A stretch of DNA of 64,000 nucleotides from Sporanaerobium hydrogeniformans (GTDB lineage: Bacteria > Bacillota > Clostridia > Lachnospirales > Cellulosilyticaceae), in contig NZ_PEDL01000007.1 in assembly GCF_002735925.1 (NCBI RefSeq), positions 1-64,000 of the forward strand. The letters run 5' to 3'. The notes beneath the pieces are model-generated. The model ran no database searches, was not told where the DNA came from, and saw only the letters and a program-made list of their open reading frames with translations. How positions within the stretch are numbered: position 1 is the stretch's first letter; the number at the start of each line of letters is the position of its first letter. Shown piece by piece: positions 14,304 to 38,537 of the stretch. Made by a program: the position numbers and the translations under genes.

Positions 14304-14596
14304 TTAAAAAACGCCCTTTTATCCATAAAGTTATGAATAAAAGGGCGAGTATAAGTCCCGCGGTGCCACCTTTATTTGTTAGCCCTAAAAAATCAGACTA
14401 ACCTTGCATACTGCTATATAGGGCAGTCCCCTCCTGATTCATCACCAGCGACTCCAAAAGCGGACCATCTTAACATATTTACTAGTTCTCACCATCCACT
14501 AGCTCTCTAAAAAACATTATTAAGACTTTTCTTTTATCATCATCGTAAATTTATATCATTTGCTTCTATTATAAAATACCCCTTCACAAAAAGCAA
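14304..14596 (-). promoter_or_regulatory. Promoter and T-box riboswitch of serS
   Basis: On the minus strand there is a promoter TTGCTT-17-TATAAT (14591-14596 and 14568-14573). It is followed by a stem I region with AGAGAG (about 14503-14508) and a GGTGAGAA kink-turn-like motif. The invariant T-box AGGTGGCACCGCGGGAC lies at 14355-14371. Last is a terminator of CGCCCTTTTAT/ATAAAAGGGCG with six U residues (14306-14347). This is a standard transcriptional T-box reading tRNA aminoacylation. I could not place the specifier codon with confidence; serine is inferred from the downstream gene. Confidence 0.93.
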
Positions 14597-14636
14597 GGAA
14601 TTAGAATTATTATTTTAATAATGTATATAATGTTCA

Positions 14637-14729
14637 ATTATTGGTGATAATATGCTTGTACCAAGTGTGAGGTACATCGCTAAATCCCCCCTCAACCTAG
14701 GTTTCTCCCCCTGAAACCTAGGCTTTTTT
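14637..14729 (+). ncRNA. Candidate C-rich small regulatory RNA
   Basis: The predicted start is near 14638, after a -10 TATAAT at 14626-14631 (weak -35, TTAGAA at 14601-14606). The RNA would hold three hairpins: ATTAT/ATAAT, GTACC/GGTAC, and a perfect 10-bp terminator CCTAGGTTTC/GAAACCTAGG followed by CTTTTTT. C6 (14686-14691) lies single-stranded between hairpins 2 and 3, and C5 (14707-14711) is the terminator loop. C-rich unpaired motifs that pair with Shine-Dalgarno sites are typical of Gram-positive regulatory RNAs. The U tract lies only on the plus side, so this is not the terminator of the converging bgl genes. No open reading frame. Confidence 0.5.
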
Positions 14730-14765: not shown

Positions 14766-16259
<1,494 letters not shown>

Positions 16260-38264: not shown

Positions 38265-38390
38265 CATAAAAATAGCACACCTATGGAACATACTACTGTC
38301 CCACAGATGTGCGTAAAATGCAATCTGTTGCCGCTCACTGGGCGGCCCGGCCCCATGACCTTTCAAAGAAAGGTTCATCGCCTGCTCAGT
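38265..38390 (-). promoter_or_regulatory. NiCo (czcD) riboswitch with terminator expression platform
   Basis: The aptamer (38295-38390, minus) carries the conserved pieces in order: ACTGAGCAGGC, a GGTCATG hairpin end, GCCGGGC, GCGGCAACAGAT, and ACGCACATCTGTGGGACAGT. These match my memory of the crystallised NiCo aptamer nearly base for base. The last element also forms a 16-bp terminator arm (GCACATCTGTGGGACA with TGTTCCATAGGTGTGC, all paired with G-U allowed, 38275-38312) followed by TATTTTTAT. Metal binding should prevent termination and turn on the ATPase. Confidence 0.9.
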
Positions 38391-38537
38391 TTGTACTGTT
38401 GATCTCGCATTCACAAAGGAATGTAATGCAGCGCAAAGAGGTTACTAAATATTATATGCAGTTGTAATATAATTGTCAACTGAAATAAGATATTTTAATA
38501 TTTTTTAAAAATTTATTATTAATTTTAATAATTAAAA

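What the first reader, a model, noticed from the sequence alone, without database searches (positions are those of the whole stretch)
14637..14729. Candidate small RNA with two unpaired C-tracts between serS and the bgl operon
A plausible promoter, three short hairpins, C6 and C5 in unpaired positions and a strong one-sided terminator on the plus strand make an independent RNA of about 90 nt. C-rich loops pair with Shine-Dalgarno sequences in known Gram-positive regulators (RsaE/RoxS type). It faces the bgl operon and is divergent from the T-box leader.
Basis: partly seen in the sequence, partly recalled or inferred. Interest (0 to 1): 0.6.

Follow-up and report, generated by a model that had tools for sequence, protein, structure and literature searches.

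The report
Probable forespore anti-RBS small RNA
A short stretch of DNA next to a tRNA-synthetase gene encodes what looks like a small RNA, not filed in the RNA library searched, that is conserved in spore-forming relatives and in the giant Epulopiscium, has the promoter of a gene active in the developing spore, and seems built to cover the ribosome-binding site of certain messages.

Summary
Window 14658-14729 (+) encodes a predicted ~72-nt RNA: hairpin P1, an unpaired C6 segment, and a terminator hairpin with C5 in its loop. Homologs occur in 24 of 24 family genomes and 66 of 196 genomes drawn from the order; draws from other orders gave none that convinced. Upstream lies not a vegetative but a forespore sigma-F/G-type promoter (GTATA-N15-GGTGATAATA). 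All 66 carriers have a strong sigG-type match; none of 43 genomes without one carries the RNA. Viviparous Epulopiscium keeps it, promoter included. The complement of its core reads as a ribosome-binding site (GAGGGGGG-8 nt-AUG; an AUG or UUG complement is so placed in 44 of 46 homologs). Among sampled gene starts it pairs best or nearly best with ymxH (YlmC/YmxH sporulation protein), encoded just after sigG: rank 1/404, 4/348, 1/349, 1/325, 5/319 in five genomes. No Rfam family matches above threshold. CsfG (RF00516), the known forespore C-rich sRNA, differs in sequence but shares the logic. Best reading: a CsfG-like forespore sRNA that blocks translation starts, ymxH being a likely target. 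Transcription, compartment and repression are inferred, not shown.

The parts
14623..14627 (+). -35 element GTATA of a forespore (sigma-F/sigma-G type) promoter
   Evidence: 12 of 13 informative positions of the sigma-F consensus (GTATA / GGNAANAMTR, quoted in PMC3416734 Table 4, passage)
14643..14652 (+). -10 element GGTGATAATA of the same promoter
   Evidence: its last 7 bases GATAATA equal the sigma-G -10 that PMC3416734 lists for Epulopiscium cwlD
14658..14729 (+). the small RNA, about 72 nt (predicted start at or next to G14658)
   Evidence: R1 match 14658-14729, E 2.2e-22 (the sequence is in the model's seed); conservation starts at the P1 arm. 5' end not mapped
14658..14675 (+). hairpin P1, GUACC / GGUAC, loop AAGUGUGA
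   Evidence: invariant within the seed alignment; other arms (CCUUAA/UUAAGG-like) in family f4; own arms -7.68 kcal/mol on average against -4.06 for swapped arms
14675..14693 (+). unpaired seed CAUCGCUAAAUCCCCCCUC: complement of GAGGGGGG-AUUUAGCG-AUG, i.e. of an SD, spacer and start codon
   Evidence: the antisense of this site is itself hit by the pattern SD-gap-ATG; AUG complement 5-10 nt before the C run in 37 of 46 homologs, 8.3 expected from shuffles
14696..14722 (+). terminator hairpin P2, 10 bp, loop UCCCCCU
   Evidence: double changes in 4 of its 11 counted pairs and in 5 of 6 consensus pairs across the order
14724..14729 (+). T run of the terminator
14338..14552 (-). neighbour: T-box leader of serS (not part of the RNA)
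   Evidence: RF00230, 94.3 bits
12955..14250 (-). neighbour: serS, divergent
14766..16250 (-). neighbour: 6-phospho-beta-glucosidase of the bgl operon, convergent

Best explanation
A stand-alone ~72-nt small RNA, transcribed in the forespore by sigma-F and/or sigma-G RNA polymerase and ended by its own terminator. It folds into a 5' hairpin and a terminator hairpin and exposes CAUCGCUAAAUCCCCCCUCAA plus a C-rich loop. The exposed strand is the complement of an SD-spacer-start-codon unit, so it base-pairs with messages whose ribosome-binding site is G-rich and blocks 30S binding. A likely target is ymxH (YlmC/YmxH sporulation protein), whose start lies 20-82 nt after the sigG stop codon in 11 of 14 family loci examined and so is probably carried on the forespore sigG transcript; the RNA would keep this protein, assigned to the mother cell in B. 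subtilis, from being made in the forespore. Shown: sequence, predicted structure, conservation, promoter motif, co-occurrence with sigG, complementarity. Inferred: transcription, compartment, translational block, target, purpose.
For: Conservation: 24 of 24 family genomes; 51 of 196 of the order with model R1, 66 of 196 with R2. Structure: (9 cells with double changes against 2.6 in shuffles, 0 of 500 reach it); P1 compensation. Promoter: directly before the P1 arm in 44 of 46 homologs by my reading of the listing; consensus from PMC3416734 (passages). sigG: RNA in 66 of 153 genomes with a sigG-type match, 0 of 43 without; in family f22 9 of 9 and 0 of 13. Anti-RBS reading: complement of AUG 5-10 nt before the C run in 37 of 46, of UUG in 7 more. 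Target: ymxH rank 1/404 (own), 4/348 (G007), 1/349 (G008), 1/325 (G002), 5/319 (G158) for duplex energy with the seed; spacer-shuffled seeds as good in 0, 465, 1, 1 and 73 of 500. Over 23 loci ymxH is in the top 5% of 1660 background starts in 13, against sigG 0/12, sigE 1/15, nrdR 1/10. G5 run in the ymxH RBS in 19 of 24 RNA-positive loci against 26/404, 18/348, 34/349, 29/325, 20/319 of sampled genes. Distance to sigG. Family TIGR02888.
Against: No transcript data. Taken singly, an upstream region beats its shuffles at 0.05 in only 18 of 46 cases. Sigma-F and sigma-G cannot be told apart. In one search two of the covariation measures are not outstanding (pairs with double changes reached by 41 of 500 shuffles, further pair types by 105 of 500). 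Genomes share descent, so counts overstate independence; sigG loss in f22 may be one event. 87 genomes with sigG-type matches lack the RNA. In 7 of the 66 carriers that match is partial or weaker than 1e-100 and could be a fragment or sigF. In G007 pairing beyond the C run is not specific (465 of 500 shuffles as good), and outside the family only 4 of 13 ymxH starts reach the top 5%. In 15 of 39 RNA-positive sigG loci no ymxH was found nearby. ymxH was noticed among a handful of genes at the sigG locus, a mild selection. A G-rich SD may exist for its own sake; sigE often has one too (7 of 15).
Confidence: 0.6

Rival explanations
1. A forespore sRNA as above, but a general C-rich (anti-SD) regulator with many targets, ymxH being one G-rich RBS among many and not special.
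For: The C tract is the most conserved part; GAGGGGG-gap-ATG occurs 85 times in the own genome against 43 for the reversed pattern; several other sampled starts come close.
Against: In G000, G008 and G002 ymxH beats every other sampled gene, and pairing extends through spacer and start codon (0, 1 and 1 of 500 spacer shuffles as good).
Confidence: 0.45
2. A distant member of the CsfG family (RF00516) rather than an independent counterpart.
For: Same promoter type, C-rich unpaired segments, terminator. RF00516 matches lie in 99 of 249 phylum and 21 of 236 class genomes, none listed from the window's order. With filters off, R2 gives sub-significant matches at the CsfG site itself in 5 of 24 CsfG-like loci (L146, L147, L148, L151, L163; E 0.46 to 8.1), 5 of 32 matches listed, more than their share of the sequence; shared C-richness and terminator may explain it.
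Against: RF00516 does not match the window (E up to 10) or 12 diverse homologous loci (E up to 1); R2's best match in the 24 CsfG-like loci has E 0.069 and lies elsewhere; core sequences differ.
Confidence: 0.18
3. Protein-binding or sponge RNA: the C tracts bind an RNA-binding protein or a G-rich sponge RNA, not mRNAs.
For: Very strict sequence conservation; B. subtilis CsfG co-precipitates with Hfq (PMC3574147, passages); a sponge for C-rich sRNAs exists in B. subtilis (PMC8216469, passages).
Against: The SD-spacer-start arrangement of the complement and the ymxH ranking are unexplained by it.
Confidence: 0.2
4. An sRNA of the RsaE/RoxS type without link to sporulation.
For: C-rich unpaired tracts facing SD sequences, as described for RsaE/RoxS (PMC4409812, passages).
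Against: No Rfam match above threshold; forespore promoter motif; absent from all 43 genomes without a sigG-type match.
Confidence: 0.07
5. Leader or attenuator of the downstream gene, or the minus strand being a real RBS and start codon of a short gene.
For: The antisense reads SD+AUG; in 9 of 46 loci an adhE-like gene follows on the same strand (by its N-terminal sequence); the minus strand folds well.
Against: The next downstream gene is on the opposite strand in 23 of 44 loci with one; terminator T run and promoter are on the plus strand; the minus-strand reading frame runs into the diverged promoter region.
Confidence: 0.04

Closest known systems
CsfG sRNA of Bacillus subtilis (RF00516 'ylbH leader'; PMC3574147 reports that the transcript comes from the opposite strand)
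   Same: Sigma-F/G control in the forespore during sporulation (PMC8216469, PMC9147052, passages); C-rich unpaired segments; terminator
   Different: No significant sequence or model similarity in either direction; core TTTCCCCATAAG...TTTCTCCTCTCCC; other genomic place; in B. [quoted passage not shown]
RoxS/RsaE sRNA
   Same: C-rich regions that can pair with the SD (PMC4409812, passages)
   Different: ResDE-regulated in B. subtilis (PMC4409812, passages); no Rfam match here
FsrA sRNA
   Same: C-rich regions (PMC8216469, passages)
   Different: Fur-regulated (PMC8216469, passages); no Rfam match here

Membership tests
CsfG / RF00516 | Covariance-model match to RF00516 | tested here: not met
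   No match in the window at E up to 10; none in 12 homologous loci at E up to 1; own genome and 12 family genomes without match
CsfG / RF00516 | Conserved core UUCCCCAUA..CUCUUCC..UUUCUCCUCUCCC | tested here: not met
   R2 best E 0.069 in CsfG-like loci, off the CsfG site; 0.46 at a CsfG site
CsfG / RF00516 | Sigma-F/G-type promoter | tested here: met
   12 of 13 consensus positions in the window; a motif, not an assay
CsfG / RF00516 | Location between ylbG and ylbH | tested here: not met
   Window neighbours are serS and a bgl gene
CsfG / RF00516 | Restricted to genomes with sporulation genes | tested here: met
   Tested with sigG only: 66 of 66 carriers have a sigG-type match (59 stronger than 1e-100), 0 of 43 genomes without one carry the RNA
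CsfG / RF00516 | Expression confined to the forespore during sporulation | not testable with these tools
   needs RNA data
RsaE/RoxS | Rfam match | tested here: not met
RsaE/RoxS | C-rich unpaired regions complementary to SD | tested here: met
RsaE/RoxS | ResDE-type control of its promoter | not tested
   no site search made
Independent sRNA (general) | Own promoter and terminator, conserved, not tied to one neighbour | tested here: met
   the transcript itself is not shown

The most novel reading that the evidence does not exclude
The RNA is a compartment-fidelity device: a forespore anti-RBS RNA that silences a mother-cell sporulation protein (YmxH) whose gene rides on the forespore sigG transcript. 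It was kept when Epulopiscium turned sporulation into live birth, so its job belongs to offspring development and not to dormancy.
Probability: 0.22. Interest if true: 0.8.

Novelty: new variant of a known kind. Interest (0 to 1): 0.62.

Why it matters
Forespore sRNAs are little understood: for CsfG, the model, PMC8216469 (2021) and PMC9147052 (2022) state that no mRNA target was known, although the introduction of PMC12456014 (2025) says that it regulates mRNAs (passages only). It makes the question of what forespore C-rich RNAs do testable with one reporter pair.

Tried and rejected
Rfam: nothing at the RNA at gathering thresholds. With E up to 10 five sub-threshold matches appear, the best Acido-Lenti-1 (19.2 bits against a threshold of 37, E 0.022), which covers the terminator hairpin only; judged chance. 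Sigma-70 promoter: no plus-strand site just upstream. Short peptide: a plus-strand frame from an ATG at 14652 exists in the window, but many other genomes lack that ATG, one homolog has a C fewer and several lack the stop; rejected. Minus-strand gene: rejected, see rivals. CsfG membership: not met; the odds of this rival were raised from 0.15 to 0.18 on re-reading. One RF00516 hit in a relative (L032, 31.8 bits) lacks the CsfG core and was judged chance, as was L164 among 15 class loci viewed. One R2 hit outside the order (G649, model positions 21-65 only) shows neither terminator nor promoter to the eye and was judged chance. L081 is a weak, atypical homolog and L080 lacks the loop C tract; both were kept and left out of alignment A4 with 13 near-duplicates (31 of 46 used). 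One search (repeats near one homolog) gave nothing of use. Marchais 2011 (CsfG) is not held: nothing of it was read, only its citation in other papers. Searches for the RNA in print: (listings); none names such an RNA, and PMC3416734 has no hit for small RNA or sRNA; absence from print is not proven.

sigE was considered as a second target (G5 in 7 of 15) but its median is the 20th percentile. The pattern missed one ymxH (L181). In one search one start (L069) was not found and one (L050) was set wrongly; both were left as they fell. In one search the start of the RNA-negative ymxH in L267 is uncertain. The class and phylum searches score few candidates per genome with strict filters, so distant homologs there may be missed.

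Full report
What is there. Window 14658-14729 on the plus strand has a short hairpin (P1, GUACC/GGUAC), an unpaired stretch with C6, and a 10-bp terminator hairpin with C5 in the loop and a T run. The fold is far more stable than shuffles (z -4.94, 0 of 200).

Conservation. A DNA search found the element in 28 of 59 genomes: 24 of 24 of the family including the own genome, 4 of 35 others of the order. Within the family, bases from P1 to the C tract are almost invariant while the flanks differ freely. A covariance model (R1) found 51 of 196 genomes of the order; a wider core model (R2) found 66 of 196. Of 292 genomes of the class only the own one matched; of 249 of the phylum the own one and one hit judged chance. 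These searches use strict filters. 26 named records hold the core, among them Cellulosilyticum, Niameybacter, Epulopiscium (E. viviparus included), Defluviitalea and Vallitalea, so the window lies in the Cellulosilyticum/Epulopiscium family; its species was not identified.

Structure. In 19 distinct sequences 96.9% of cells pair, against 94.7% in shuffles (0 of 500 reach it), with 9 cells changed on both sides against 2.6 (0 of 500); the number of pairs with such a change, 4, is reached by 41 of 500 shuffles. Across the order 5 of 6 consensus pairs of the terminator stem have double changes. P1 is invariant in that alignment, which proves nothing, but family f4 has other arms (CCUUAA/UUAAGG and the like): own arms pair at -7.68 kcal/mol on average (45 of 46 sequences) against -4.06 for 748 pairings of arms swapped between f4 and the rest. 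The distance from start to C tract runs from 28 to 100 nt, so the P1 loop varies widely.

Promoter. The sigma-70 scan finds nothing on the plus strand just upstream. Instead there is GTATA-N15-GGTGATAATA, 12 of 13 informative positions of the sigma-F consensus quoted in PMC3416734 (Table 4, passage seen); the sigma-G -10 consensus fits its end almost as well. Of 46 homologs, 31 score 11 or more of 13, with spacers of 14-15 in 45. Taken singly only 18 of 46 beat shuffles at 0.05, but by my reading the best match sits directly before the P1 arm in 44 of 46. This is the pattern of a forespore promoter; which sigma is open.

Link to sporulation. TIGR02850 (sigma-G) was searched in the same 196 genomes: 43 have no match better than 1e-40, 153 have one far better. 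The RNA is in 66 of 153 and 0 of 43 (Fisher 1.7e-9, not corrected for descent). In 59 of the 66 carriers the match is stronger than 1e-100; in 7 it is partial or weaker (down to 3.5e-71) and may be a fragment or sigF. In family f22 the RNA is in 9 of 9 with and 0 of 13 without. 87 genomes with a match lack the RNA, so it marks a clade of sporulators, not sporulation as such. The E. viviparus record (L094, NZ_ABEQ01000006.1) holds the RNA and 60 bp before it identical to L008, whose promoter scores 13 of 13. According to PMC3416734 (abstract start, passages) this organism makes intracellular offspring by a process like sporulation and has fewer late spore genes than its sporulating relative.

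What it may do. Read backwards, the seed CAUCGCUAAAUCCCCCCUC is GAGGGGGG-AUUUAGCG-AUG: an SD, an 8-nt spacer and a start codon. The arrangement holds with different spacers in other families: 37 of 46 homologs have the complement of AUG 5-10 nt before the C run (8.3 expected from shuffles), 7 more have that of UUG, and 2 (L067, L081) have none (homologs share descent). The pattern GAGGGGG-gap-ATG occurs 85 times in the own genome against 43 for the reversed pattern. One of those sites lay just past sigG (its gene looks like nrdR). Looking at that locus in relatives, the gene between them, ymxH (TIGR02888, YlmC/YmxH family), had G-rich ribosome-binding sites.

Target test. Duplex energy between the seed and the start regions of sampled genes puts ymxH at rank 1/404 in the own genome, 4/348 in G007 (Epulopiscium), 1/349 in G008, 1/325 in G002 and 5/319 in G158 (family f22) (a run with a shorter seed gave 1/404, 3/348 and 1/349). 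With the spacer part of the seed shuffled, pairing is as good in 0, 465, 1, 1 and 73 of 500: in three genomes it reaches specifically through spacer and start codon; in G007 the C run match alone carries it (rank 1 of 348 for the C run by itself). Across 23 loci with ymxH next to sigG, 13 are in the top 5% and 5 in the top 1% of 1660 pooled background starts; sigG 0 of 12, sigE 1 of 15 and nrdR 1 of 10 are in the top 5%. Inside the family 9 of 10 reach the top 5%, outside it 4 of 13. A G5 run is in the ymxH RBS of 19 of 24 RNA-positive loci and in none of the 3 ymxH found in 20 RNA-negative sigG loci, one of these with an uncertain start. ymxH was not found near sigG in 15 of 39 RNA-positive loci, three of them in the family, so other targets must exist there or ymxH lies elsewhere.

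Logic proposed. ymxH starts 20-82 nt after the sigG stop in the 11 family loci that have it, of 14 looked at, so it is probably on the sigG message, which in B. subtilis is made in the forespore (gene list in PMC3416734, passage). B. subtilis ymxH is listed under sigma-E there (passage), and PMC9332280 (passages) infers a redundant mother-cell role for YlmC and YmxH. A forespore RNA covering the ymxH start would keep this protein out of the forespore. This last step is inference.

Comparison. CsfG is the closest in kind: C-rich and forespore-controlled (PMC3574147, PMC8216469, PMC9147052, passages). By the tests made it is another family: neither model finds the other significantly and its core differs. 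With filters off, though, 5 of R2's 32 sub-significant matches in 24 CsfG-like loci fall on the CsfG site, which shared C-richness and terminators may explain but which keeps distant kinship open. RF00516 matches 99 of 249 phylum and 21 of 236 class genomes, none listed from the window's order, so the two RNAs may replace each other; the order is thinly sampled there (one search adds 21 genomes with one chance hit).

Neighbourhood. A close serS lies divergent within the flank held in 14 of 46 aligned loci, from six families (flanks 1.5-2.5 kb, some cut), with T-box leaders found beside several. An adhE-like gene follows in 9 of 46, by its N-terminal sequence. Many Cellulosilyticum, Epulopiscium and all 12 f4 loci have other neighbours. 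No bgl relative was found next to the RNA elsewhere. The RNA is therefore most likely a gene of its own.

Verdict. A real, clade-wide forespore-type sRNA absent from Rfam (existence and forespore link about 0.8), acting most likely as an anti-ribosome-binding-site RNA (about 0.6), with ymxH a credible target in the window's family.

Noticed in passing
L030 (G001:C1:970595-970625 and integrase ORF L030:1679-2731, minus strand); L031 in G022: A 31-nt copy of the sRNA terminator lies beside a tyrosine integrase (PF00589), about 42 kb from the full sRNA in G001; G022 has a like copy beside the end of a very similar ORF. An integrative element seems to use the 3' end of this sRNA gene as its attachment site.
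   Followed up: partly
L140-L149, L151-L165: CsfG-like RNAs are more widespread than Rfam's threshold admits: RF00516 matches 99 of 249 phylum and 21 of 236 class genomes, only 6 and 0 over the cut-off; of 25 viewed, 24 have the conserved core, and some a forespore-type promoter to the eye. RF00516 is filed as a leader; PMC3574147 reports the transcript on the other strand.
   Followed up: partly
sigG loci L166-L182, L253, L264, L265: sigE has a G5 ribosome-binding site in 7 of 15 loci, though its pairing with the sRNA is unremarkable.
   Followed up: partly
L057, L059-L066 (families f22/f21): P1 of the Vallitalea-type RNAs holds a large insert with what looks like a second stem (GAGG..CCTC), so the 5' domain reaches 70-82 nt before the C tract; function unknown.
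   Followed up: no
G016:C11:45911-46612: The best sigG match of one RNA carrier holds six in-frame stops; it may be decayed or interrupted.
   Followed up: no
window 38294-38399, minus strand: NiCo riboswitch (RF02683, 80.1 bits).
   Followed up: no
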